The notes under the pieces are model-generated. The model worked only from the letters and a program-made list of their open reading frames with translations. It was not told the DNA's origin and made no database searches. A stretch of 31,554 bases of DNA from positions 1-31,554 of the IMG/VR virus record IMGVR_UViG_3300047157_000054. One strand, 5' to 3'. This stretch comes from a virus. This document shows positions 1 through 31,554 of the stretch, piece by piece (the first letter of the stretch is position 1; the number at the start of each line of letters is the position of its first letter). A program made the position numbers and the translations under genes.

Positions 1-792
1 CCAGAGCTTCAAGAGGAGATGGATAAGGTAGTGGGACAAATGTCTCAAGCGTGGTGGCTAACTCCTAATGAAAAAAGAGCTGCTATGAGCTATGGCATGG
101 ATGATGATAACACTAAGTTAAATGATTATTATGTACCTGCGAATTTACTACCAATAGATGGCGAAATTATCCCAGAGATTGAAGATAAAAAAATAGATGT
201 AGATATATCTCAGATGTTTAAATCTCAAGTAATTAATACAGTAGATACATACACTACTATAGCAGAAGCTCAAGCAAGAGCTATAGAAATGGGAGGATCT
301 GGATACCATGAGCATATGTTTAATGGATCTACTGTATATATGCCTTTTGCAACTCATGCAGAATATGAAGCTGCTAAAAACAATCGACTAGAGGAATTTT
401 ATGCAGCTCAAAGACAGGAACAGGGATTTAACGAACAAATAGATTTTAATTCTATAGAAACAAAAGAAGATACTTATAAAGATTATCCGCAAGGTGCTAC
501 TAATAATGCCAGGAGGATGCTAGAATGGAGAGAGAAGTATGGCAGAGATGAGGTAAAAGGTGGGACTGCTGTAGGATGGCAGAGAGCAAACCAGTTAGCT
601 AATAGAGAAACCATTAGTTTATCAACTGTAAAAAGAGTTAATAGCTTTTTAGCACGCCATATAGAAAACGCTAAAATAGCAGATGAATTTAAAGATACGC
701 CTTGGAAGGATAAAGGTTATGTAGCTTATAATCTCTGGGGGGGTGCTGCTATGGTATCCTGGGCAAAAAAAATAGCGGAAAATGAAGGGTAA
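1..792 (+). CDS. Portal protein, C-terminal part (continues from 30394-31554)
   Basis: Position 1 is the first base of a codon that continues the frame open at the end of the window, so this is the 3' part of the portal gene; the joined protein is 650 aa. The first ~50 codons complete the HK97-type portal core. Two further modules follow. Window 235-385 holds a short motif region (AEAQARA, GSGYHEH, VYMPF) and 483-780 holds a conserved-looking segment (YPQGATNNAR, GWQRANQLANRE, WKDKGYVAYNLWGG). I recall both types from structural proteins of other phages, but they have no function I can name. Usual HK97-family portals are near 400-450 aa, so about 200 residues are extra. The portal forms the dodecameric DNA gate of the head. 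The stop overlaps the next ATG (TAATG), suggesting translational coupling. An internal ATG at 19 is not the true start. Confidence 0.88.
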   Translation, partial: PELQEEMDKVVGQMSQAWWLTPNEKRAAMSYGMDDDNTKLNDYYVPANLLPIDGEIIPEIEDKKIDVDISQMFKSQVINTVDTYTTIAEAQARAIEMGGSGYHEHMFNGSTVYMPFATHAEYEAAKNNRLEEFYAAQRQEQGFNEQIDFNSIETKEDTYKDYPQGATNNARRMLEWREKYGRDEVKGGTAVGWQRANQLANRETISLSTVKRVNSFLARHIENAKIADEFKDTPWKDKGYVAYNLWGGAAMVSWAKKIAENEG

Positions 793-2672
793 TGCTAAAA
801 AAAGCAAAACAATCCTGGAAGGATAACTTCGATAAGGTTCTATCTAGTTCAGAATCAAAAGAGTTTGCAAAGGTTCGTAAATATTACGATGACCAATATA
901 GGCAAGCTATTGATGGGTTTTTAAAAATGAATAAAACCACTGGATTCGATAACCTATTTAGAGTGGCGGATATAGCAGATATTTATAGCCAGATATATGT
1001 AAACATTGGAGTCAAGTTTGCAAAATGGTATGCTAAAAACTTTGATAAAGTAGTTTCTAAACAAACAGATGTATCTGGTTATACAGATATATGGGCGGAA
1101 AGATTTAACAATGTAAGTCAACAAATAGCAGCCGAAAGGGTTACACTTGTTTCTGGAACTGCAAAAGCAACTCTTGTAAAAGTATTTAAACGACTTTCAT
1201 CAGATCCAGAGTTTATGGTAATGAATGAGAGAGAAGCCAGTAGGATATTACGCCAGAAGTTCGGACAATATTCTAAGAGCCAGGCAGAGAGATTAGTGAG
1301 AACTGAAGCTACAAACGCTGCAAACTTTGCGACACTTCAAAGCGCTACAGATATGTTTGGTCAAGACAATTTGCAAAAGGAATGGATGACCGCTTTAGAT
1401 GGCAGAGAAAGACCAGCGCATAGAGCTGCTGATGGGCAAATAGTAGATTTTAAAGGAAGATTTAAGGTAGGGGGGGAATTATTATTTAATCCTGGAGATC
1501 CAGCAGGAAGTGCTAAAAATGTAGTTAATTGCAGATGCTCAACTGCGCCATTTCCTAAACCAGATGCTCAAGCTGCAGGAACTATAGAAGGATTTGGAGT
1601 GCCAACTCCAGGAACTCTGCCTGGAACTAAACCTCCAAAGCCGCCAACTGGTAGCTCTCTAAGTATATTAAAGCCAGTAAGAGAAGTGGTCGAGGAGGTA
1701 ACAGAAAAAGCTGATGATATAGCATTTAAAAGTATTAAAGAGGCAGAGGATTACTTTGCAAATAATTTAGGCGGTAAATTTACAGATTTAAAAGGAATGG
1801 ATCAAAGAATAGCTAATGATTTTGTAAATAGCATTCGTAAAATGCAATCTGAGTTCCCAGGATTAAAAGTTGAAACCTTAGCAACTTTACCAAAATACAG
1901 ACAAGCTGTTTTGGATGATGTAATGATCCAGATAAAAAAGTCACGATATTACAAAAAAATGTCAGAATTTTATGGTGTTGATAGATATGATAAATCTCTT
2001 ATAAAGAGATTAAGGAAAATTTTACATATACAGACATCAAATGCTACAGCTGCATTTCATTCTGGGAAAAACTTTAAATGGGGCGCTTATGGTATTGATG
2101 TTAATTTATCAAAGTATAGAGGTATAGTTTCAAAAAATAATTACTCTAAAAGAGGTTTTAACAAAGCAGTAGATGAAGGAAAAAAAATGAGGCAGCTTGA
2201 ATGGTGGTCAAAAGGAAGTGAGACAAATACATTTAAACATACTTCTATACATGAAATTGGACACGCTTTAGATGATCAAATACAGTTTTTTAAAGAGCCA
2301 GAGTTTATAAAATATTATGAAAGGACTAGAGGCAAAGGGGAGGACTATATATCAAATTCGCTTTCTAAACCATTTAAAGCAAATGCATATGTTAAAAACA
2401 ACTTGTCTGAGTATGGCAGCTATAATGAAAAAGAATTTATAGCTGAATCATTAGCTGAATTTTATAACTCAGAAAATCCTAGACAAATATCTAAGGATGT
2501 AGCTGAGATGATGAAAAGGTATTGGAAAAAAAGAAATAATAAATCAATGAATAAAAATCAAAAAATTAACTTAGATAATGAGTTTGATGAGTTTCCAGAA
2601 GGTTTTACTATTATAGTAGAACCATATGGCGGAGGTTTACATAAACCAGGCGATAATTACGATAAATTTTAG
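792..2672 (+). CDS. MuF-like minor head protein fused to a zinc-metallopeptidase-like C-terminal domain
   Basis: 626 aa. Residues ~1-255 look like a SPP1 gp7/Mu F head morphogenesis protein: RLVRTEATNAAN, then EWMTALDGRERPAHR, and the terminal cysteine motif VNCRCS with C247 and C249. A Pro/Gly-rich linker follows (~260-295). The C-terminal half carries HEIGH (H487-E488-x-x-H491) and, about 60 residues on, EFIAESLAEF (E548, E552, E556), the layout of a gluzincin-type zinc peptidase such as the anthrax lethal-factor-like group. MuF proteins sit inside the head near the portal and some carry C-terminal effector or toxin domains; by analogy this domain could be packaged and injected. Zinc binding, peptidase activity and targets are inference. 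Gene order portal-MuF-protease-capsid is classical. Confidence 0.82.
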   Translation: MLKKAKQSWKDNFDKVLSSSESKEFAKVRKYYDDQYRQAIDGFLKMNKTTGFDNLFRVADIADIYSQIYVNIGVKFAKWYAKNFDKVVSKQTDVSGYTDIWAERFNNVSQQIAAERVTLVSGTAKATLVKVFKRLSSDPEFMVMNEREASRILRQKFGQYSKSQAERLVRTEATNAANFATLQSATDMFGQDNLQKEWMTALDGRERPAHRAADGQIVDFKGRFKVGGELLFNPGDPAGSAKNVVNCRCSTAPFPKPDAQAAGTIEGFGVPTPGTLPGTKPPKPPTGSSLSILKPVREVVEEVTEKADDIAFKSIKEAEDYFANNLGGKFTDLKGMDQRIANDFVNSIRKMQSEFPGLKVETLATLPKYRQAVLDDVMIQIKKSRYYKKMSEFYGVDRYDKSLIKRLRKILHIQTSNATAAFHSGKNFKWGAYGIDVNLSKYRGIVSKNNYSKRGFNKAVDEGKKMRQLEWWSKGSETNTFKHTSIHEIGHALDDQIQFFKEPEFIKYYERTRGKGEDYISNSLSKPFKANAYVKNNLSEYGSYNEKEFIAESLAEFYNSENPRQISKDVAEMMKRYWKKRNNKSMNKNQKINLDNEFDEFPEGFTIIVEPYGGGLHKPGDNYDKF

Positions 2673-2678
2673 AATTAA

Positions 2679-2686
2679 TATATTTG
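2679..2686 (+). promoter_or_regulatory. Bacteroidetes -7 promoter box TATATTTG before prohead protease
   Basis: TATATTTG matches the Bacteroidetes TAnnTTTG consensus and ends 4 nt before the ATG at 2691. Initiation normally falls only a few bases downstream of this box, so a transcript from here would be leaderless or nearly so. No TTG at the -33 position is visible. Confidence 0.5.
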
Positions 2687-2690
2687 CAAT

Positions 2691-3383
2691 ATGAATACAA
2701 TCATTTATAAATCAACTCAGATAGGAGAGCTGCTAGATGCAGACACTTCTGCTGGAGTTGTCAAGGGATATGGATCTGTTTTTGGTAATGTCGACAGCGA
2801 TGGAGATGTAATTAATAAGGGAGCATACAAAAAAACAATACAAGAAAACGCCAGAAGGGTTAAATATTTATATCAGCACGATATGGATAAGCCACTGGGG
2901 AAAATGGTAAATCTCGAAGAGGATGACAAAGGTTTAATATTTGAGGCGCATATACCTAAAACACAATTAGGTAAAGATGTAGTCGAATTAATGAAAGCTG
3001 GAGTTATTACTGAAAATTCTGTAGGGATTTTGCCATTACAAAAAGAAATGGGATCTGATGGGTATCGTCACTTAAATGAGGTGAAACTGTTTGAGATCTC
3101 AGCTGTAACACTTGCAGCAAACGACCAGGCAATGATTATGGATGTAAAAGGAAACGTAGATCCAGAAAAAATTGCTAAAAGATTCGATAAACTCGCTCAA
3201 TTAATCAGAAAGGGAGAAATCTCTGATGATCTGGGATACGCCTTAGAGGCGGAAATATTAAAGCTAAAATCTATTTATGTTAATGTCACTCAGCCGACTG
3301 ATATACAAGTCACTGAGCCGATCGAGGTAAAAGCAGACAATAGCGATATTTATAATTATTTGTTTAACACTCTAAAAAAATAA
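2691..3383 (+). CDS. HK97-family prohead protease
   Basis: 230 aa, typical of the U35/S78 prohead protease family that trims capsid delta domains during head maturation. Visible hallmarks are GYGSVFGNVDSDGD near residues 26-39, the catalytic histidine in YQHD (H63) and the nucleophile serine in ENSVGI (S110), followed by LFEISAVTLAAN, the usual motif near the end of the core. The ~75-residue tail (DPEKIAKRFDKL onward) is outside the catalytic fold and may be a scaffolding or propeptide segment. Its ATG sits just behind a TATATTTG promoter box and the capsid gene follows after 2 nt, so both are probably co-transcribed. Family assignment is secure; the tail function is unknown. Confidence 0.93.
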   Translation: MNTIIYKSTQIGELLDADTSAGVVKGYGSVFGNVDSDGDVINKGAYKKTIQENARRVKYLYQHDMDKPLGKMVNLEEDDKGLIFEAHIPKTQLGKDVVELMKAGVITENSVGILPLQKEMGSDGYRHLNEVKLFEISAVTLAANDQAMIMDVKGNVDPEKIAKRFDKLAQLIRKGEISDDLGYALEAEILKLKSIYVNVTQPTDIQVTEPIEVKADNSDIYNYLFNTLKK

Positions 3384-3385
3384 TA

Positions 3386-4600
3386 ATGGAGGATAATGTA
3401 AAAAAAGAACTCGATCAAATTGGCAACATTGTTGACGAAAGAATCGAGAAAGCATTTAACCAGGCAAAAGATAACGCCAAAGGTGAAATGGAATCATCTC
3501 TTAAATCAGAGATTGATAATTTAACTACACAATATGTAGAGAAAAATGATGCTCTTAATAAGAGAATGGATGAAATGGAGCTAGCTGCTAAGAAAACACT
3601 TTCTGGCGCTTCTCAGCAATCATTTAAGTCAGCTATCGAAGGCGCATTAAATGAAGGTGCTATCGAAGCAATGACTAAAGGTAATTCTAACGCTGCTAGA
3701 TTTGAGGTGAAAGCTGATATGTCTATAGGAGCTGATATTACTGGAGTAGTAGCTGGAGAAACTGTAGTAGATGCAATTAAGTTTGATCCTAGTAGATCAA
3801 CTCACATCCGCTCTTTAATTCCTCAAGGTTCTACTGATGCGCAAACTATTAGATTCCCAAAAGAATCTGCTTATAGTGATAACGCTGCTGCAACTGCTGA
3901 AGCTGCTGCATTTGGTCAGTCAGATTTTAATCTAGTTGCAACTTCTGTAAATGTCGAGAAAATCGGTACTTACATGAGAATAACTGGAGAAATGCTTGAT
4001 GATGTAAAACAGCTAACTTCTTATCTATCTGCTAGAGTACCTGAAAAAGTACTTTCTGTAGAGGATACTGAAATCCTTAATGGTGACGGATCATCTCCAA
4101 ATTTAGATGGTTTATTTACTGATGGAACTGCTTTCACTACATCTGCTGGAGGTTTATTTTATCACGCGATAGAATCAGCTAATGAATTTGATGTATTAGT
4201 AGTAGCTCTAAATCAATTAGGTTTATTAAACTATCAAGCTGATAGCATTTTATTAAATCCAACTGATCTTCATAAAATGATTTTACTGAAATCTACTGCA
4301 AATGAATATTTGAGAAATCAGATTTTCAGCGGTATTCAGCCAACAATCAATGGAGTTCCTGTTACAGTAAATACTGCTGTACCTAATGGGAAGTTTTTAG
4401 TAGGTAATTTACGTCAAGCGACTCAGCTTTGGATTCGTGAGAATCTAGCTGTAGAGTTTTCTAGAGAAGATAGCGATAACTTCCAGAAAAACTTTGTGAC
4501 TGTTCGTGCAATGGAAAGAGTAGCTTTGACTAATTATCAGCCAAACGCTATTGTTCAAGGTACGTTTAGCACTGCTAAAACTGCTTTAGAAACTTCATAA
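3386..4600 (+). CDS. Major capsid protein, HK97 fold
   Basis: 404 aa. Residues 1-~75 are charged and heptad-like (KKELDQIGNIVDERIEKAF, YVEKNDALNKRMDEMEL), matching the coiled-coil delta/scaffold domain that the adjacent protease removes. The shell part contains RFPKES, a long beta-rich E-loop-like region, and VEKIGTYMRITGEMLDD, characteristic of the Phage_capsid family; it ends with an A-domain-like strand set (ERVALTNYQPNAIVQGTF). The cleavage point is inferred to lie near residues ~100-115 and cannot be read from sequence alone. It directly follows the protease (2 nt gap). A strong terminator begins 42 nt after the stop, closing the head unit. Confidence 0.92.
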   Translation: MEDNVKKELDQIGNIVDERIEKAFNQAKDNAKGEMESSLKSEIDNLTTQYVEKNDALNKRMDEMELAAKKTLSGASQQSFKSAIEGALNEGAIEAMTKGNSNAARFEVKADMSIGADITGVVAGETVVDAIKFDPSRSTHIRSLIPQGSTDAQTIRFPKESAYSDNAAATAEAAAFGQSDFNLVATSVNVEKIGTYMRITGEMLDDVKQLTSYLSARVPEKVLSVEDTEILNGDGSSPNLDGLFTDGTAFTTSAGGLFYHAIESANEFDVLVVALNQLGLLNYQADSILLNPTDLHKMILLKSTANEYLRNQIFSGIQPTINGVPVTVNTAVPNGKFLVGNLRQATQLWIRENLAVEFSREDSDNFQKNFVTVRAMERVALTNYQPNAIVQGTFSTAKTALETS

Positions 4601-4755: not shown

Positions 4756-4917
4756 ATGAAAAATAAGATTCAAAAATTCAAAAAATCTGATGAATATATA
4801 GTTTTATCAGAAATGTTTAAACCCAGGATATTATTACAGGGTTTGCTATTAAATTTAATTGCTTTTGCAAGTATGTATGGAGCTTTAGAATTATGGTTAA
4901 TTATTAAATTTAGTTAA
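4756..4917 (+). CDS. Small putative membrane protein (53 aa)
   Basis: Starts at the first ATG behind the palindrome-bearing promoter. Residues 1-~25 are polar and basic, then ILLQGLLLNLIAFASMYGAL and LWLIIKF form a hydrophobic stretch long enough for one membrane helix, possibly a helical hairpin. I do not recognise a family. It opens a chain of four overlapping or abutting tiny genes (4756-5364) bounded by terminators. Placement suggests an accessory role at the host membrane, such as superinfection exclusion, but that is inference from context only. Confidence 0.55.
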   Translation: MKNKIQKFKKSDEYIVLSEMFKPRILLQGLLLNLIAFASMYGALELWLIIKFS

Positions 4918-4918
4918 T

Positions 4919-5065
4919 GTGGATTTGCAGCAAAAGGTTAGATCTGCTTTAATACTGGGATTTTTTGCCTGGGGTACATCCCTGGGCATTAGATACCAGG
5001 CAGCATGGGATGCTTTAGCTATGTATATTTTAGCGTTTATTATGATTAGATATGGCAAAGAATAA
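4919..5065 (+). CDS. Small putative membrane protein (48 aa, GTG start)
   Basis: The only reasonable start is GTG at 4919, one base after the preceding stop, so it depends on an alternative start and translational coupling. The product begins VDLQQKVRSALILGFFAWG and contains two hydrophobic segments (ALILGFFAWGTSLGI and ALAMYILAFIMI) separated by RYQAAWD, the outline of a two-helix membrane mini-protein. Holin-like topology is possible, but a better holin candidate lies beside the endolysin. The reading frame overlaps the next gene by 14 nt. No family recognised. Confidence 0.5.
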   Translation: MDLQQKVRSALILGFFAWGTSLGIRYQAAWDALAMYILAFIMIRYGKE

Positions 5066-5219
5066 ACCTAGTATTCATAATAGAGAAATTGATCCTCAAG
5101 AATTTTATCTTAATAGTATTCAGAATATTACAGGTAAAATGACTCCAGCGGATTATTACTATCTTAGTGATAAGATAATGGACATATCAAACAGATTAGA
5201 AGCGATAAAGAATAGATAA
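5052..5219 (+). CDS. Small protein of unknown function (55 aa)
   Basis: ATG at 5052 lies inside the end of the previous frame. The product is polar, with a helical second half (MTPADYYYLSDKIMDISNRL) that could pair with a partner. No cysteine motif, signal peptide or membrane segment is visible. It is kept as a gene because it fills the space between two overlapping neighbours and its stop sits one base before the next ATG. Function unknown. Confidence 0.5.
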   Translation: MAKNKPSIHNREIDPQEFYLNSIQNITGKMTPADYYYLSDKIMDISNRLEAIKNR

Positions 5220-5220
5220 A

Positions 5221-5364
5221 ATGACTTTTATAAAAAATAATTATATAGCTAGTGGTTACACTCCTCCAGATGATTATGAGGGGGGTTATTGCAGGGTTTG
5301 TGATAAACCTAGCTATGGCGATGATATTTGCAGTTCACAATGCTTTGATGCATTCATGTTGTGA
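5221..5364 (+). CDS. Small zinc-finger-like protein (47 aa)
   Basis: 47 aa with two cysteine pairs: CRVC (C24, C27) and CSSQC (C37, C41), spaced like a compact zinc ribbon or treble-clef knuckle. The rest is Tyr/Asp-rich (YTPPDDYEGG). Metal binding is inferred from the spacing; nucleic-acid or protein binding cannot be decided. Last gene of the four-gene chain; a terminator follows 22 nt after its stop. It starts one base after the preceding stop. Confidence 0.55.
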   Translation: MTFIKNNYIASGYTPPDDYEGGYCRVCDKPSYGDDICSSQCFDAFML

Positions 5365-5386
5365 TTTTTTTCATTTGTTTTTAGTT

Positions 5387-5423
5387 AAAAACCCTGGGCG
5401 AAATACTGTCTAGGGTTTTTTTT
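5387..5423 (+). terminator. Rho-independent terminator closing the four-gene cassette
   Basis: AAAAACCCT (5387-5395) pairs with AGGGTTTTT (5412-5420); the loop can pair further through G-U contacts. The 3' arm runs into a T tract. It separates the small-gene cassette from the nuclease gene, whose promoter box begins only about 2 nt later. Confidence 0.82.
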
Positions 5424-5424
5424 G

Positions 5425-5432
5425 TAGCTTTG
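5425..5432 (+). promoter_or_regulatory. -7 promoter box TAGCTTTG
   Basis: TAGCTTTG fits TAnnTTTG and lies between the preceding terminator and the GTG at 5438, leaving 5 nt to the start codon. This geometry implies a leaderless message. No clear -33 TTG is visible. Confidence 0.5.
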
Positions 5433-5437
5433 ATTTC

Positions 5438-5812
5438 GTGGATAACAATCAGAGAGGATGCTTAGCAGAGTATTTATTTGCTACTGAGTGCATGAAACGA
5501 GGTTACCAGGTTTCTATGCCATTAATGGATTCCTCTCTTTACGACTGTATTGTAGACACTGGGAAAAATCTTTTAAAACTCCAGATAAAATCATCAATTA
5601 AAACGCCAGATAATGATAGACATAATAGTGTACATATTCCATTGCAAAACAATAAGCGCTACTACTCTAAAGAAAAAATTGACTACTTTGCTGTTTGGAG
5701 CGAGTTTTTTAGCGGCTGGTTTGTTTTTAAAAATAATGGAGAAATGCAGTCAATTAGAGTTTCACTAACTGGCAAGAATAAAAAATATTTTAATAACTTT
5801 GCATTTGAATAG
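5438..5812 (+). CDS. PD-(D/E)XK nuclease-like protein, stand-alone accessory gene
   Basis: 124 aa from a GTG start. The N-terminus resembles small PD-(D/E)XK proteins of the PDDEXK_5 or resolvase-like type: RGCLAEYLF with E11, YDCIVD with D36, and LKLQIKSS with Q49-x-K51, followed by KIDYFAVW. The acidic residue of the (D/E)xK pair is Gln here, a variant known in parts of the superfamily, so catalysis is plausible but unproven. It stands alone between two terminators with its own promoter box, the arrangement of a phage moron. Possible roles are DNA processing or attack on competing DNA. GTG was chosen because no in-frame ATG precedes the E11 motif region. Confidence 0.72.
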   Translation: MDNNQRGCLAEYLFATECMKRGYQVSMPLMDSSLYDCIVDTGKNLLKLQIKSSIKTPDNDRHNSVHIPLQNNKRYYSKEKIDYFAVWSEFFSGWFVFKNNGEMQSIRVSLTGKNKKYFNNFAFE

Positions 5813-16481: not shown

Positions 16482-18440
16482 ATGGCAGATCAAAAATTAA
16501 GAGTAGACATTATAGGGGATGCTAGTAAGCTAAACAGAGCTTTAAATACTGCATCTGGTAAATTAAAATCATTTGGCACTAGAGTTTCTGGAGTAGGAAA
16601 ACGCTTAGCAGTAGGACTTACTCTTCCTATAGGAATAGCTGGCGCTGCTGCAATTAAAATGGCTTCCGACTTTGAGGAATCTATGAATAAAGTAGATGTA
16701 GCTTTCGGATCTGCTTCAAGTGAGGTCAAGGATTTTGCTAAAACTACATTAGACCAGTTTGGAATAGCGCAAGGAACTGCTTTAGATATGGCTGCTTTAT
16801 TTGGCGATATGTCTACTTCTATGGGATTGTCTGTAGATAGTGCTGCTGATTTATCGACTTCTTTAGTGGGACTAGCTGGTGATTTAGCTTCTTTTAAAAA
16901 CATGAATATTAAAGAGGTTACTACTGCTTTAAATGGCGTTTTTACAGGTGAAACTGAATCTTTAAAGCGTTTAGGTATTGTAATGACTCAAGTGAATTTA
17001 GAGCAATTTGCTATGGAGCAAGGCATTACAAAAACTATAAAACAAATGTCTCAAGCTGAAAAAGTTCAACTCCGCTATAATTTTGTGATGTCAAAAACAG
17101 CAAATGCACAAGGAGATTTTGCTAGGACTTCTGGTGGAGCTGCAAATCAAATGCGAATATTTCAAGAAACAACTAAAGAATTGGGCGCTCTTTTTGGAGC
17201 TGTTATTCTGCCAGCTTTTACAAGTTTAGTTAAAAAAGCAAATGCTGTACTTAAAAAATTTAGAGATTTAGATAATGGTACAAAAAAAACTATAATAATT
17301 ATTGGAGGGATTGCTGCTGCTATAGCGCCAACTCTAATAGTTATAGGTGCAATGTCATCTGGAATAGGCGCATTAGCATCTGGACTAGCTATAGCTACGC
17401 CTATATTAATAAAAGTCGCTAGCGCATTTAAAACGCTTACTGTAGCTATGCTAGCAAATCCAGTGGGCATTATAGCCAGCGCTGTCGCTTTACTTACTGC
17501 AGGCATGATAGAACTTTTACATAGGATAAATCCAGCAGTATCAAGAATCCAAACCTTTTTTAATGTAATAAAATCTCTAGGAGATCCTGTAAAATTTGCA
17601 GCATTACAAGCTGAAAGTTTAGCTATTTCTCTTAAAGAAAAAAGCGATTCTGCAGCTGCTGCATCCAAAGCTCAAGAGGAATTAAAAAAGACACTTGAGA
17701 AAGCTGTAACGCCTACAAAAAAATTAAAAACAGAAACTGACAACTTAGCTAATTCATTAAAAAAAGTAAGATCTATAGCTAGTGGAGGTGATACAGGAGA
17801 AGCTGGCTTAACTAGCGCTGATGGAGTTAAACCCATTACAATAGATTTTGAAATAAATGCACCTAATATTGATGAAATAAATAGCGGCTTAAAAAATACT
17901 TTACAACGCCTACAACAAACTACAAACCAAGTAGCTGAAGAGATTGAGTTTGATTTTGCTAACATGGCTATTGGAATATCTGATGCTTTGGGCAATGCTC
18001 TTGTAACTGGTGAAAATGTATTTGCAGCTATTGGAAGTGTTATTTTAAATACTATTGGAACTTTATTGCAGCAAATGGGTACAGCAGCAGTTTTAGCTTC
18101 TAAATTATCATTAACTTTTGCAGTACCTATAGTCGGTGCGGCTGCTGGTTTAGCTGCTATAGGATTAGGCGCTGCCATGAAAGCATTCGCAGGTCAAATT
18201 CAAAACGTCAAAAAATTCGCTAATGGTGGTATAGTTTCAGCTCCTACTCTTGGACTTATGGGTGAATATACAGGCGCTAGATCTAATCCAGAAGTAATAG
18301 CGCCACTAGATAAGCTAAAGGGAATGCTAGGACAGCAAGGAGGTCAAAACATAAACGTAGGTGGCGAATTTAGAATACAAGGACAGGATTTAGTAGTAGC
18401 TTTACAGCGAGCTGAAAAAAATCGTAGTAGATTGTTATAA
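16482..18440 (+). CDS. Tape measure protein
   Basis: 652 aa. The N-terminal part is the TP901-type tape measure core: GDASKLNRALNTASGKLKSF, then MASDFEESMNKVDVAFG and SLVGLAGDLASFKNM with GVFTGETESLKRLGIVM. Hydrophobic helices lie near 265-350 (TIIIIGGIAAAIAPTLIVIG; NPVGIIASAVALLTAGMI) and 525-575 (SKLSLTFAVPIVGAAAGLAA). The C-terminus has the FANGGIVSAPTLGLMGE motif seen in many tape measures. At about 1.5 angstrom per residue the tail would be near 100 nm. The stop overlaps the next ATG (TAATG). Confidence 0.92.
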   Translation: MADQKLRVDIIGDASKLNRALNTASGKLKSFGTRVSGVGKRLAVGLTLPIGIAGAAAIKMASDFEESMNKVDVAFGSASSEVKDFAKTTLDQFGIAQGTALDMAALFGDMSTSMGLSVDSAADLSTSLVGLAGDLASFKNMNIKEVTTALNGVFTGETESLKRLGIVMTQVNLEQFAMEQGITKTIKQMSQAEKVQLRYNFVMSKTANAQGDFARTSGGAANQMRIFQETTKELGALFGAVILPAFTSLVKKANAVLKKFRDLDNGTKKTIIIIGGIAAAIAPTLIVIGAMSSGIGALASGLAIATPILIKVASAFKTLTVAMLANPVGIIASAVALLTAGMIELLHRINPAVSRIQTFFNVIKSLGDPVKFAALQAESLAISLKEKSDSAAAASKAQEELKKTLEKAVTPTKKLKTETDNLANSLKKVRSIASGGDTGEAGLTSADGVKPITIDFEINAPNIDEINSGLKNTLQRLQQTTNQVAEEIEFDFANMAIGISDALGNALVTGENVFAAIGSVILNTIGTLLQQMGTAAVLASKLSLTFAVPIVGAAAGLAAIGLGAAMKAFAGQIQNVKKFANGGIVSAPTLGLMGEYTGARSNPEVIAPLDKLKGMLGQQGGQNINVGGEFRIQGQDLVVALQRAEKNRSRLL

Positions 18441-20605
18441 TGGCATACAATTTAAAATATGAGCTTTTTTTCTCTGATGTAGAGGAAAATAAATTTAAAA
18501 TAGAAATACTTCAAAAAGATTTTATACTAGATCCTTTTAATACAGGCGTACAGCCAACTCAAATAATTGGTACTGGTAATCCTGTACAAATAAAATGGGA
18601 TGCAGATGATGATATTTATTCTCCTATAATTGGCTCTAGATGTATTTTAAATTTCTTTGTTACAGATACAACAATTTATGATGATTTTTATAAATCTGGA
18701 GAGCGAGAGTACAAAGTAAAAATATTAGAATATACTAGCTTTGGAAGTGACTTAGAAACTGAAGAGTTACCTTATAATTTAATTGATCAGAATTGGGATG
18801 GCAAACTCGGATCAGAGGTATTTTTTAATCCTATATGGGAGGGTTTTATAGTAAATGATGGCTATAAAGAAGCAGTAGTATCTGCGCCTTATGAAATACA
18901 GTTGGAAGCTATAGATGGACTCGGAACTCTTGAATCTTTTGACGTTCCTTTCCCTAGTGATAATGCAAGTGCAAAAGAGAAAATGTTTTTTTATTTAAAA
19001 GAAATTTTAAAACTAACTGGTCACGAATTTCAAATTTATATAGCTAATGATATTAGAAAAAATGGAGCTACTGCAAATGATACTATATTTCACGATATAG
19101 AAGTTGATAGATATATTTTCTCAAATAAGAATTTGATTTTAATGGATGCTAAGCAAGCATTAAAGCATATACTTCTAATGACAAACAGCAGAATATTTCA
19201 ATCATTTGCTAAATGGTATGTAGTGAATAACTCAAGTTTAATAGACAATAGGATTGTCCAGGGAACTGTAGCGCCTAGCGCAGTAGACGTTATTAATGAG
19301 CCAGCAGCGCCAGTAGCTACTCCTGTATATGGATCTCCAGATGTTTCTATTGATGGAGTTGCTCAAATGTATCATAATACAGGGACAAGCTATAGATTAA
19401 TAGCTGTAGAAGATGGAGGTACTGAAGTTATTAAATGGACTTGGAATTTACCTGGTGGCGGTACTGTAGTGCAAAATGATCCTACAAATCAATTTTTTGG
19501 CGAGTACTCTCTAGGTTTAGTCAGCTCAAGTCAAGATGGAGACAGCTATACAGTTACAGGCGAAGATGCTAATGGTCAAACAGATACATCTGCTGCTTTT
19601 GTTTTAAACATAGACACTTATAATTATGTTACAACTCCTCCATCAGTAGTCGACACTGGAGAAAGTAGCTCAGATAGTGATCTGAATGTCCCAAGTGTTT
19701 TGCAGGATGTATCTTATGATTTACGAATTAATGCAGATTCAAACTTTAATGTTACAAACGCTATTGTATCGCCAGCAAATGGGACTCTAGCATATGGAGC
19801 TGGAGAAGTAGGAGATGCTTTTACAATGAATTTTAATGTGTTTTCTAATGTAGGAGAGTTTACATCGGCTAGTCAATTAACAGGAGTATCTGTAACTGGA
19901 GGATTTAGTGTATCTCACGCTTTAAGTGGTGACGTAATAATAGTAACTGTAACTGGATCTAGACCTATAGGATCTACTACAGAGCTTTTAGTTTTAACAG
20001 GAGCTGCAGATGTTCAACAATTTACTCACAGTTTTAGCGTTACTGATAGCGCTACAAATGCAAGCATATCTCCATCTAGTTTTTCAGCCGCTGGAGGCGA
20101 TGGGCAAACATATACTAAAACTTTTGATATTACCGCCAGCTCTGGCTATAAATGGCAAAGCGCTGGTAATGTTACAGTCATTTCTAATAGCGTTATTTAC
20201 GACAGTTTAACAGTTTCTAAAGTTTCAGATTCTGTTTTAAGAGTAACTATAGCAGGTACTATAGGAGTTTCAGATAAGAGCGCTACAATAACAGTTACTG
20301 GACAGCCAGTAGGCGCAGCTCCAGCTACTTCTATTTCATTAAGTCCATCGCCTACATATGAGATTGCTCAAAACTCTGGTTATTTTGACGTTTCAGTTAC
20401 TGCTGATGGAAATTATAGGATAGAGCCAGATAGATCCTGGCTATCATTTAATCCTAGCTCTGGAGTTCCTGGAACTCAAACTGTAAGGGTTAAATTTAAA
20501 GCTAATAACAAAGCTAATACCAGGTCAAATAGTATTAACTTTTTCCCCAGTGGCAGTAATTCGGTATTATTATCAGCTGCGGTACAACAAGACGGAATAG
20601 CATAA
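18440..20605 (+). CDS. Distal tail / baseplate protein with Ig-like and BACON domains (721 aa)
   Basis: Position right after the tape measure and the N-terminal ~275 residues (LKYELFFSDVEENKFKIEIL; PYEIQLEAIDGLGTLESF; FYLKEILKLTGHEFQIYIAN) indicate a distal tail or hub protein of the kind seen in Bacteroidetes siphoviruses. From about residue 285 it becomes a string of Ser/Thr/Gly-rich beta modules (Ig-like). Residues ~629-721 look like a BACON domain: DRSWLSFNPSSGVPGTQTVR with W667, then KANTRSNSINF and a terminal QQDG. BACON domains are proposed to bind glycans or mucin. A role in adhesion at the tail tip is inferred. Confidence 0.78.
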   Translation: MAYNLKYELFFSDVEENKFKIEILQKDFILDPFNTGVQPTQIIGTGNPVQIKWDADDDIYSPIIGSRCILNFFVTDTTIYDDFYKSGEREYKVKILEYTSFGSDLETEELPYNLIDQNWDGKLGSEVFFNPIWEGFIVNDGYKEAVVSAPYEIQLEAIDGLGTLESFDVPFPSDNASAKEKMFFYLKEILKLTGHEFQIYIANDIRKNGATANDTIFHDIEVDRYIFSNKNLILMDAKQALKHILLMTNSRIFQSFAKWYVVNNSSLIDNRIVQGTVAPSAVDVINEPAAPVATPVYGSPDVSIDGVAQMYHNTGTSYRLIAVEDGGTEVIKWTWNLPGGGTVVQNDPTNQFFGEYSLGLVSSSQDGDSYTVTGEDANGQTDTSAAFVLNIDTYNYVTTPPSVVDTGESSSDSDLNVPSVLQDVSYDLRINADSNFNVTNAIVSPANGTLAYGAGEVGDAFTMNFNVFSNVGEFTSASQLTGVSVTGGFSVSHALSGDVIIVTVTGSRPIGSTTELLVLTGAADVQQFTHSFSVTDSATNASISPSSFSAAGGDGQTYTKTFDITASSGYKWQSAGNVTVISNSVIYDSLTVSKVSDSVLRVTIAGTIGVSDKSATITVTGQPVGAAPATSISLSPSPTYEIAQNSGYFDVSVTADGNYRIEPDRSWLSFNPSSGVPGTQTVRVKFKANNKANTRSNSINFFPSGSNSVLLSAAVQQDGIA

Positions 20606-30393: not shown

Positions 30394-31554
30394 ATGGCAT
30401 CTCTACTAGATAGATTCAAAAACATTGTTTCTAAAAGCGCATCTAAAACTCATATAGATTTTAATAAAGCTATTTATAACTACTTAGGCGATTCCTTAGT
30501 TTGGAATCCAGAAAATGATGATACTTATATTGATAAAGGATATAGGTATAACGCTACTATTTACTCAATAGTTAATTTAATAACTAAAGCAGCGACAAAT
30601 ATTCCTTTTCAAGTTTATGAAATACAAAAACAAAACGACTTAAAAAGATATAAAGCTCTAACATCTGGAGAGTTTAACGGAAATACAGTGCTGCAAGCTA
30701 AAATGCTACAAAAAAAAGCATTAGTAGAATTGGAGGGTACTGAGTTACATCAGTTACTAGATAGACCTAATCCAGCTCAAAGCTACTCCAGCTGGATCCA
30801 AGAAATTATAGCTTTTGGAAAACTTACTGGAAATAGATATATCTATGGTATAGCGCCAGAGACAGGTATAGGAGCTGGTAAATATAAGGAGCTTTACATA
30901 TTACCATCTCAAAAAATAGAAATCAACTCTGGAGGTATTATGCAGCCAGTAAAGGAATATACTTTATCTTATAATGGATCATATAAAATAGCAGCTGATG
31001 AAATCTGCCATATAAAGGATAATAACCTCTATTATGATGGAACTGGATCACATCTTTATGGAATGTCTCCACTAAAAGCTGGACTCAGAGTAATGGATGC
31101 TAATAACCAGGCGTTAACTACAGGAGTAAAATATTTACAGAATCAAACAGCTAGGGGGGTGCTTATGTCTGATGAAGGAGATTTAAATGAAACTCAAGCT
31201 AGAGCATTAAAAGAAAAATTCAAGCAGCAATACCAGGGAAGTGAAAATGCTGGAGATGTTATTATAACACCTAAGAAACTCAGCTGGGTAAACTTTGGAC
31301 TTAATGCTTCTGATCTATCTCTTATAGAACAATATAACGCCACTATTAAGGATTTATGTAATATCTATAATGTTCCAGTACAGCTTTTAAATAATACAGA
31401 CAGCACAACTTACAACAATATGAAGGAAGCAAAAAAAGCGCTTTATCAAAATGCTGTAATTCCAGAGCTAAATAAAATCAGAGATGAATTGAATAGATGG
31501 CTCGCTCCTCAGTATGGAGATAAGATCTATATTGACTTTGACTATAGCGCTATT
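30394..31554 (+). CDS. Portal protein, N-terminal 387 codons (continues at position 1)
   Basis: Starts ATG at 30394 and is open to the window end with no stop. Motifs of HK97-family portals: RYNATIYSIVNLITKAATNI (the early clip-forming helix), DRPNPAQSYSSWIQEIIAFG, LTGNRYIYG, LYGMSPLKAGLRVMDANNQA, ARGVLMSDEG, NIYNVPVQLLN and TYNNMKEAKKALYQNAVIPE. The last codons run into CCAGAGCTTCAAGAG at position 1 (PELQE), exactly where the family continues. Length to the true stop is 650 aa. The DNA gate and packaging ring of the head; it interacts with terminase, encoded just upstream. Confidence 0.93.
   Translation, partial: MASLLDRFKNIVSKSASKTHIDFNKAIYNYLGDSLVWNPENDDTYIDKGYRYNATIYSIVNLITKAATNIPFQVYEIQKQNDLKRYKALTSGEFNGNTVLQAKMLQKKALVELEGTELHQLLDRPNPAQSYSSWIQEIIAFGKLTGNRYIYGIAPETGIGAGKYKELYILPSQKIEINSGGIMQPVKEYTLSYNGSYKIAADEICHIKDNNLYYDGTGSHLYGMSPLKAGLRVMDANNQALTTGVKYLQNQTARGVLMSDEGDLNETQARALKEKFKQQYQGSENAGDVIITPKKLSWVNFGLNASDLSLIEQYNATIKDLCNIYNVPVQLLNNTDSTTYNNMKEAKKALYQNAVIPELNKIRDELNRWLAPQYGDKIYIDFDYSAI

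What the first reader, a model, noticed from the sequence alone, without database searches (positions are those of the whole stretch)
792..2672. MuF head protein carries a zinc-metallopeptidase-like domain (possible injected effector)
The protein has a MuF/gp7 core ending in the VNCRCS motif, then a linker and a C-terminal half with HEIGH (H487-H491) and EFIAESLAEF (E548/E552/E556) about 60 residues later. That is a plausible gluzincin active site. MuF fusions with toxin or effector domains are known in other phages and prophages; a HExxH effector in a lytic-looking Bacteroidetes phage, made as a virion component, would be unusual. It could process head proteins or be injected to cut host proteins or act between competing phages.
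Basis: partly seen in the sequence, partly recalled or inferred. Interest (0 to 1): 0.72.

Follow-up and report, generated by a model that had tools for sequence, protein, structure and literature searches.

The report
Swappable peptidase cassette on phage head
A marine bacterial virus carries, on a minor protein of its capsid, a zinc protease resembling the catalytic part of anthrax lethal factor, and close relatives carry different proteases, most with their own small partner gene, or nothing at the same spot, which looks like an exchangeable weapon-and-antidote slot in viruses that kill their hosts.

Summary
Observation confirmed. Window 792-2672 encodes a MuF head protein whose C-terminal half is an ATLF-like zincin (HEIGH 487-491, Y541, E548). 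Pfam ATLF falls just short of its cutoff (26.8 vs 27.4 bits); the predicted fold aligns best to the anthrax lethal factor catalytic domain (Z 9.0; model pLDDT 69). Of 82 related MuF genes, 4 are cut off, 45 have no extension and 33 have one, each with HExxH (three types, 22 distinct sequences). All 29 testable type II/III zincins are followed by a type-matched small gene; the 45 short MuFs are not. The window's type I has no separate small gene but a conserved tail. The cultured Flavobacterium phages lotta8-1 and pippi8-1, near-identical beside the slot and isolated as virulent, carry different HExxH extensions and small genes there. Best reading: virion-borne, injected zinc peptidases with cognate inhibitors, polymorphic-toxin-like, in phages without detected integrase. 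Packaging, injection, catalysis, target and inhibition are untested. MuF-metallopeptidase toxins with downstream small ORFs are known from temperate phages: a new variant of a known kind.

The parts
30394..31554 (+). Portal protein, N-terminal part; the frame runs over the record's end and continues at base 1
   Evidence: Pfam Phage_portal 7.5e-54; window end and start are adjacent in L002
1..792 (+). Portal protein, C-terminal part (not a separate gene); its stop codon overlaps the MuF start
   Evidence: One open frame of 653 codons in L002 and L003
792..1571 (+). MuF/gp7 minor head protein core, residues 1-260
   Evidence: Phage_Mu_F 2.5e-12; 78-97% identical in 11 relatives, several with different C-termini
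1572..1684 (+). Linker; left edge of the exchangeable cassette lies at about 1684 (residue 298)
   Evidence: blastn to L003: 93.5% identity up to 1684, no match from 1685 to 2660
1685..2660 (+). Exchangeable cassette of type I
   Evidence: Replaced in L003/L004/L005 by a type II zincin plus small ORF; homology resumes at 2661
1824..2216 (+). Mosaic part of the zincin module, about residues 345-475, 67-90% identical in DNA to L002 while both sides are 99-100% identical
   Evidence: Sliding nucleotide identity
2217..2525 (+). Catalytic zincin core, residues 476-578, ATLF-like
   Evidence: PF07737 5e-6, 26.8 bits; VIA-align best match lethal factor catalytic domain Z 9.0
2250..2264 (+). HEIGH, H487/E488/H491: predicted zinc ligands and general base
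   Evidence: Position checked; HExxH in 33 of 33 extensions
2412..2435 (+). Y541-x3-N545-x2-E548: predicted transition-state tyrosine and third zinc ligand (roles recalled from lethal factor)
   Evidence: Y541 and E548 invariant in 18 of 18; same Y-x6-E spacing in 74 of 74 HExxH proteins linked to the Cys-type small ORF
2547..2669 (+). C-terminal tail, residues 586-626, at the place where other cassettes have the separate small gene; begins with an in-frame ATG
   Evidence: No separate ORF; conserved in L060, dN/dS 0.09 over 42 codons
2691..3383 (+). S78 prohead protease, right flank of the cassette
   Evidence: Peptidase_S78 4.8e-29
3386..4600 (+). Major capsid protein (HK97 type)
   Evidence: Phage_capsid 6.8e-38

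Best explanation
The C-terminal half is an ATLF/M34-fold zinc peptidase effector carried into the virion by its MuF domain. It belongs to an exchangeable cassette at a fixed site between the MuF core and the S78 protease gene. SHOWN by sequence: MuF fusion; zincin motif; a site that is empty or filled by one of several zincin types in otherwise similar phages; a type-matched small ORF, overlapping or within a few bases of the zincin stop codon, behind every testable type II and III zincin of this lineage; purifying selection on zincins, small ORFs and the window's tail in the pairs tested. INFERRED: the MuF domain puts one or a few copies into the head; the peptidase enters the cell with the DNA and cleaves a host (or rival phage) protein; the small protein is a cognate inhibitor made together with the zincin, which keeps it off in the producing cell during assembly and may protect that cell against an incoming virion of the same type; in the window the conserved tail 586-626 takes this place in cis or is made from its internal ATG.
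For: Zincin: (lethal factor Z 9.0, 166 residues, 3.9 A). Cassette: 82 MuF genes = 4 cut, 45 without extension, 33 with, all 33 HExxH (22 distinct sequences); window/L003 breakpoints at 1684 and 2661 with 93.5% and 97.2% nucleotide identity outside. Partner genes: 19 of 19 type II and 10 of 10 type III zincins with a visible S78 gene have the matching small ORF; 0 of 45 short MuFs have room for one (gaps of 12-36 nt). Searching from the Cys-type small ORF alone, 77 of 79 informative loci have a zincin directly upstream. Zincin and small-ORF similarities correlate (rho 0.56, 0 of 500 permutations as high), MuF and zincin hardly (0.10, 42 of 500) in 51 distinct loci. Extra or orphan small ORFs: L139, L196, L199, L215. 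Isolates: lotta8-1 and pippi8-1, 99.2% and 99.7% identical on the two sides of different MuF extensions plus different small ORFs. Dispensable for assembly: 45 of 78 lack it. Purifying selection. [quoted passage not shown]
Against: No experiment: catalysis, presence in virions, delivery, target, toxicity and inhibition are unproven. Pfam ATLF stays under its cutoff and Foldseek gives no significant PDB match (best E 0.61, a PPEP). The model has mean pLDDT 69. The window's own cassette lacks a separate small ORF, and its tail is only weakly like the small ORFs of other ATLF-like zincins (window tail 14% to the first row, no invariant column). Type matching is not strict outside this lineage: the HEIGH zincin of L063/L163, aligned with the window's type, is followed by a Cys-type small ORF. 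In L141/L145 the small ORF is far more diverged than the zincin (pS 0.33 vs 0.05), so the pair is not strictly inherited together. Two loci have the small ORF without a zincin upstream, also compatible with another function. Why a virulent phage would need an antidote is not obvious. Many contigs are near-duplicates, so counts are not independent events; the small-ORF classes were defined on seven of the same loci.
Confidence: 0.6

Rival explanations
1. The zincin is a head-assembly or self-processing protease: it trims MuF or other head proteins inside the procapsid, and the small ORF is a scaffold or assembly factor.
For: It sits in the head gene cluster next to S78 protease and MCP. Zincin-like peptidases of polyvalent proteins are proposed to process their own polypeptide (passages of PMC5512222).
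Against: 45 of 78 resolvable relatives, each with the S78 gene, have no such domain. Different zincin types replace each other beside near-identical head proteins, which does not fit a fixed substrate in the head. FPSV-S1, whose MuF is related to that of lotta8-1, has a short MuF only.
Confidence: 0.1
2. The zincin is an injected effector, but the small ORF is a chaperone, folding or packaging partner (or activator) rather than an inhibitor; the exchange follows host adaptation, with no competition between phages.
For: Type matching and overlapping genes fit a chaperone as well. A virulent phage kills its cell, so an antidote has no obvious host to protect.
Against: Small ORFs of the Cys type without a zincin upstream in L199 and L215, and extra small ORFs in L139 and L196, recall orphan immunity genes. 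In published MuF toxins the small downstream proteins neutralise the toxin (passages of PMC11699363).
Confidence: 0.22
3. A catalytically inactive zincin fold used as a binding or decoration domain.
For: No activity was measured; the Pfam score is under the cutoff.
Against: HExxH is kept in 33 of 33 lineage extensions; tyrosine and glutamate follow in 74 of 74 HExxH proteins linked to the Cys-type small ORF; dN/dS 0.13 in the catalytic part.
Confidence: 0.06

Closest known systems
MuF polymorphic toxins of temperate phages (Jamet et al. 2017, PMC5576092; passages read)
   Same: MuF N-terminus, variable toxic C-terminus, small ORF directly downstream; 20% of their 191 putative MuF toxins have a metallopeptidase domain.
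   [quoted passage not shown]). Here three recombinase families are absent from 12 records, the cultured carriers lotta8-1 and pippi8-1 come from phages described as virulent, the 33 extensions are all HExxH proteins, and the window's type I lacks a separate small ORF. Which metallopeptidases they list is in supplementary tables that I could not see.
Bxa of Bacteroides stercoris prophage PhiBxa and Apk2 MuF toxins (PMC11699363; passages read)
   Same: MuF fusion in the head region, toxic enzymatic C-terminus, cognate small immunity genes, exchangeable toxin domains in Bacteroidales.
   Different: ADP-ribosyltransferase or alarmone synthetase instead of a peptidase; prophages of gut bacteria.
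ATLF / MEROPS M34: anthrax lethal factor catalytic domain and Pro-Pro endopeptidases
   Same: HExxH, Tyr and Glu spacing, fold by VIA-align (Z 9.0, and about 6-7 for PPEPs).
   Different: 16-20% identity over the aligned part of lethal factor; a phage head domain instead of a toxin-delivery domain of that kind; substrate unknown. The M34 assignment of both groups is recalled. A passage of Zhang et al. 2012 (PMC3482391) lists lethal-factor-type toxin domains with PVC and T2SS delivery and an Imm-SuFu partner, not with MuF.
Zincin-like MPTases of polyvalent phage proteins (Iyer et al. 2017, PMC5512222; passages read)
   Same: Phage-borne zincins linked to the lethal factor fold and proposed to be delivered with the DNA.
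   Different: Those lie in multidomain proteins in 12 clades; here a single zincin on MuF, mostly with a cognate small ORF. Whether any of the types falls in one of the 12 clades was not tested.

Membership tests
ATLF PF07737 / M34 peptidases | HExxH with a Glu third ligand and a Tyr seven residues before it | tested here: met
   H487, H491, Y541, E548 invariant in 18 of 18; the roles of Tyr and Glu are recalled from lethal factor
ATLF PF07737 / M34 peptidases | Pfam gathering score 27.4 bits | tested here: not met
   25.6 bits whole protein, 26.8 bits C-terminal part
ATLF PF07737 / M34 peptidases | Fold of the lethal factor catalytic domain | tested here: met
   VIA-align: lethal factor Z 9.0, 166 aligned, 3.9 A; the 50 entries shown are titled lethal factor or anthrax toxin complexes, PPEP/Zmp1 or Certhrax. 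Caveats: model pLDDT 69, Foldseek alone not significant
ATLF PF07737 / M34 peptidases | Zinc-site geometry and peptidase activity | not testable with these tools
   Coordinates are not provided; no assay
MuF polymorphic toxins | N-terminal MuF domain | tested here: met
   2.5e-12
MuF polymorphic toxins | Variable C-terminal toxin-like domain on a conserved N-terminus | tested here: met
   33 of 78 with one of three zincin types, 45 without
MuF polymorphic toxins | Small ORF directly downstream of the long form | tested here: inconclusive
   Met in relatives: 29 of 29 testable type II/III. Not met in the window, L001 and L060 (gap 18 nt, no ORF)
MuF polymorphic toxins | Association with temperate phages (a reported distribution rather than a definition) | tested here: not met
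   No PF00589, PF07508 or PF00239 match in any of 12 records; no relative of the MuF core confirmed in genome contigs (two short patterns); other lysogeny genes not searched; the 11 related records may be fragments
MuF polymorphic toxins | Toxicity and neutralisation by the small protein | not testable with these tools
   Needs expression
Head maturation proteases | Present in all members with the same head genes | tested here: not met
   Absent from 45 of 78

The most novel reading that the evidence does not exclude
Strictly virulent phages carry a true polymorphic toxin-immunity system on their capsids: virion-borne zinc peptidases that are injected with the DNA, with cognate inhibitors made in infected cells. 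The system then decides contests between co-infecting or superinfecting phages, explaining why the pair is swapped as a unit between sister phages of one host. In the window's type the antidote has become fused to the toxin as a tail with its own internal start.
Probability: 0.22. Interest if true: 0.82.

Novelty: new variant of a known kind. Interest (0 to 1): 0.62.

Why it matters
MuF toxins were described as a trait of temperate phages, where the antidote protects the lysogen. Finding the same architecture in phages without detected integrase, and in cultured phages reported as virulent, puts that logic in question and asks what the partner gene protects. It also offers a natural experiment: lotta8-1 and pippi8-1 infect the same Flavobacterium strain, are 99.2% and 99.7% identical on the two sides of the slot in the stretch compared, and differ there in the MuF extension and small gene. 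The small-protein groups described here have no Pfam match above a cutoff and are proposed as candidate peptidase inhibitors.

Tried and rejected
Head-processing role: weakened by the 45 of 78 relatives without the domain. Tail as a recognisable copy of the small ORFs: the alignment of two tails with five small ORFs that follow ATLF-like zincins shows no invariant column; a scan with the tail found only the contigs of L001 and L060, so the idea stays open. Hidden small ORF near 2300-2720 in another frame: only a 41-codon + strand frame inside the zincin and two short minus-strand frames, not compared with anything. Positive selection in the mosaic stretch 345-475: dN/dS 0.46, no sign of it. 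Prophage relatives of the MuF core: none confirmed in genome contigs with two short patterns. Small ORFs in Pfam and PHROGs: no match above a Pfam cutoff; best PHROG match phrog_33375, unknown function, E 1.7e-4 for L065. Profile comparison of types I/II with type III aligned only the shared linker; their relation rests on fold (lethal factor Z 7.8, inside the range that the tool calls common; Foldseek not significant). Isolated phages with the window's C-terminal half: only weak hits, best E 0.03; with the type III zincin of L049: none. The pippi8-1 extension matches no Pfam peptidase significantly (Peptidase_M78 E 0.044), so it is only presumably a zincin; no fold was predicted. 'Structural protein' in the lotta8-1 record is an annotation by similarity, not proteomics. 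Large multi-HExxH proteins (L158-L161) were seen among ATLF-like hits; the space behind them could not be examined.

Literature: searches and 112 of the open-licence PMC set listed no paper that I recognised as describing MuF zincins in virulent phages or these small-ORF groups; listings were not read through, papers outside that set were not searched, and supplementary tables could not be opened. Searches looked for the lotta8 isolation paper. Papers: PMC5576092, PMC5512222, PMC3482391, PMC11699363 and PMC7077304 were read as found passages only; the rest were seen in search listings.

Limits: the 82 MuF genes are the window, the 80 best of 103 relatives, and L058; the 33 extensions are 22 distinct sequences over 160 residues around HExxH (2 type I, 10 type II, 10 type III). 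The small-ORF classes were defined by seven representatives taken from the same set, so those loci match themselves. One search kept 80 of 111 relatives. In one search, 51 of the 75 loci with an upstream ORF passed the filters (length, HExxH, MuF part, non-identical); MuF parts are so divergent (median 19% identity) that alignment noise may lower their correlation.
Full report
WHAT IS THERE. The ORF 792-2672 encodes 626 residues. Residues 1-260 are a MuF/SPP1-gp7 minor head protein (Phage_Mu_F 2.5e-12; TIGR01641 4.1e-6, below its cutoff). Residues 476-578 match the ATLF family (5e-6, 26.8 bits against a cutoff of 27.4). HEIGH lies at 487-491; Y541 and E548 follow with a Y-x6-E spacing. H487, E488, H491, Y541, E548, A551 and E552 are invariant in 18 of 18 aligned homologues; some of these rows were found with patterns that contain HExxH, which biases that count. 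From recalled knowledge of lethal factor, the two His and E548 would bind zinc, E488 would be the general base and Y541 would stabilise the transition state.

FOLD. A model of residues 286-626 with 18 aligned sequences has mean pLDDT 69; the blocks around the active site (model residues 191-300) have 66 to 94. Foldseek alone gives no significant PDB match; its first rows are Pro-Pro endopeptidases (E 0.61 and up). Realigned with VIA-align, the best rows are the catalytic domain of anthrax lethal factor (Z 9.0, 166 residues, 3.9 A, 17% identity, model 29-301 on chain 562-778), and the 50 rows shown are titled lethal factor or anthrax toxin complexes, PPEP/Zmp1 or Certhrax. In the viral library two of the best four matches are phage proteins named 'Lethal factor' and one a minor capsid protein, none at E <= 0.001.

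GENOME. The last 600 and first 600 bases of the window lie end to end in contig L002 (1238-1837 and 1838-2437, 99.7% and 99.0% identity). The record therefore appears to be a whole, circularly permuted phage genome, and the 'gene' 19-792 is the end of the portal protein. Tyrosine integrase (PF00589), Recombinase (PF07508) and Resolvase (PF00239) were not found in the window or in 11 related records, which may be fragments (0 of 12 each; the control genomes rang in 14, 3 and 10 of 14). No relative of the MuF core was confirmed in genome contigs. These absences fit a virulent life but do not prove it. A viral BACON domain (PF19190) and the cultured relatives of the module suggest a Bacteroidota host.

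THE SLOT. Related MuF cores range from 97% identity down to about 50%, but the proteins differ entirely behind the core. Of 82 genes (window, the 80 best, L058), 4 are cut by a contig end, 45 stop soon after the MuF core, and 33 have an extension. All 33 extensions carry HExxH: 3 of type I (window, L001, L002), 19 of type II (HEFAH/HEFGH) and 11 of type III (HEMGH, HEYGH, HEFGH, HEIGH). They are 2, 10 and 10 distinct sequences over 160 residues around the motif. Window and L003 are 93.5% identical in DNA up to 1684, without match from 1685 to 2660, and 97.2% identical from 2661: a clean cassette exchange. L002 carries a second, smaller exchange inside type I (about residues 345-475). The type III model (pLDDT 85) also aligns best to lethal factor (Z 7.8; rows outside the lethal factor, edema factor, Certhrax and PPEP group reach 5.1 at most).

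THE PARTNER GENES. Between a type II or III zincin and the S78 gene lies a small ORF of 43-63 codons, overlapping the zincin stop (ATGA in type II) or starting within seven bases of it. Type II has a Cys-rich protein (CxxC, a further GC, IP, H, PL and Q.N conserved), 19 of 19. Type III has another, often acidic protein, 10 of 10 with a visible S78 gene. The 45 short MuFs have none; their gap to S78 is 12-36 nt. L139 has a type II zincin with its Cys partner plus an extra type III-like small ORF. Searching from the Cys partner alone gave 80 loci (of 111): one (L178) starts at the contig edge; 77 of the other 79 have a zincin directly upstream (74 with HExxH by script; L213 and L202, cut by the contig edge, and L196, with two partner genes in tandem, by reading); two (L199, L215) have no zincin there, and each carries, by eye, two ORFs of the Cys type. 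All 74 HExxH proteins have Y-x6-E-x2-AE (a stricter motif fits 67). In 51 distinct loci zincin and partner similarity correlate (rho 0.56; 0 of 500 permutations as high), whereas MuF and zincin (0.10; 42 of 500) and MuF and partner (0.05; 111 of 500) barely do. Fourteen of fifteen tested pairs show dN/dS 0.08-0.24; the L141/L145 zincins show 0.51 on few changes. Against a strict pair: in L141/L145 the partner is more diverged than the zincin.

THE WINDOW'S TYPE. Window, L001 and L060 have an 18-nt gap to S78 and no small ORF. ATLF-like zincins elsewhere do have a small ORF directly behind them in the seven distinct cases that could be read: acidic in L061, L078, L079, L080 (L153 holds the same genes) and L154, Cys-type in L163 (same contig as L063) and L164. 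L063/L163 has HEIGH and aligns with the window's type, so type and partner are not matched strictly outside this lineage. In the window and L060 the protein continues instead for about 41 residues (586-626) at the corresponding place, under purifying selection (dN/dS 0.09 over 42 codons with near-saturated synonymous change) and with an in-frame ATG at its start. A fused or internally started partner is a guess; sequence similarity to the small ORFs is too weak to support it.

CULTURED PHAGES. The type II zincin of L045 has its only match among isolate records (E <= 0.1) in the Flavobacterium phages lotta8-1 and lotta8-2 (30% identity over 75%, E 1e-11 to 1e-12). There, gp028 is a MuF protein (6.9e-14) with HEFGH and the Cys partner gp029 behind it, in a phage annotated with other portal, protease and capsid families than the window (window). 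The sister phage pippi8-1 is 99.2% identical on the left and 99.7% on the right in the stretch compared, but from locus position 4842 to 5743 of lotta8-1 it carries another extension with HEIGH and another small acidic ORF. FPSV-S1, a related F. psychrophilum phage, has a short MuF only. The isolation paper calls its 38 phages virulent or lytic, Pippivirus among them, and describes one temperate phage, laban6-1 (passages of PMC7077304).

INTERPRETATION. The pattern (fixed delivery domain, exchangeable toxin-like domain, matched small gene behind it, empty alleles, tandem and orphan partners) is that of polymorphic toxins. Jamet et al. (passages) described MuF toxins, 20% of 191 with metallopeptidase domains and 89.4% followed by a small ORF (25.5% of short MuF genes), but only in temperate phages and prophages, with none of a known toxin domain in virulent phages (association p = 0.055). 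Bxa and Apk2 show that such small genes can encode immunity proteins (passages of PMC11699363). What works like this need not be a member: the window itself misses the separate small ORF and shows no sign of lysogeny in the three families tested. I rate a packaged and injected zinc peptidase effector with a cognate inhibitor at 0.6 and the chaperone version at 0.22, and a role in competition between phages as possible but unproven. Assembly protease (0.1) and inactive domain (0.06) are less likely.

NOVELTY. Fusion of MuF to metallopeptidases is known. I found no description, in six searches of the open PMC set (listings and passages only), of the slot in apparently virulent phages, of a slot whose 33 extensions are all HExxH proteins, of these small-protein groups, or of the sister-phage pair that makes it testable.

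Noticed in passing
window 30394-31554 and 1-792: The record's ends meet inside the portal gene; the genome seems complete at 31,554 bases.
   Followed up: yes
window 2679-2693: TATATTTGCAATATG directly before and at the S78 start, resembling the TAnnTTTG promoter element of Bacteroidota (recalled); the relatives' translations show nearly the same bases there. One match in the window, 0.18 expected, at least one in 15 of 100 shuffles.
   Followed up: partly
window 1824-2216 versus L002: A smaller exchange inside the type I module: about residues 345-475 differ while both sides are 99-100% identical.
   Followed up: partly
L199 1009-1224 and 2393-2707; L215 1021-1236 and 2441-2692: Two Cys-type small ORFs each (by eye), without a zincin directly upstream: orphan partner genes, or another use of the family.
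   Followed up: partly
L196 about 2083-2690: A HEAGH protein followed by two tandem Cys-type small ORFs.
   Followed up: no
L154 1844-2715: A stand-alone ATLF-like zincin (231 aa) with an overlapping small acidic ORF in an Eubacteriales genome contig: the pair also occurs without MuF.
   Followed up: no
L158-L161: Very long ORFs with two or three HEFGH/HEFAH motifs, polyvalent-protein-like.
   Followed up: no
L141 and L145: Zincins almost identical (pS 0.05) but small ORFs more diverged (pS 0.33), so the partner can change alone.
   Followed up: no
window 18440-20605: A large protein with a C-terminal viral BACON domain (PF19190 6.5e-6), which I recall as common in phages of Bacteroidota.
   Followed up: no
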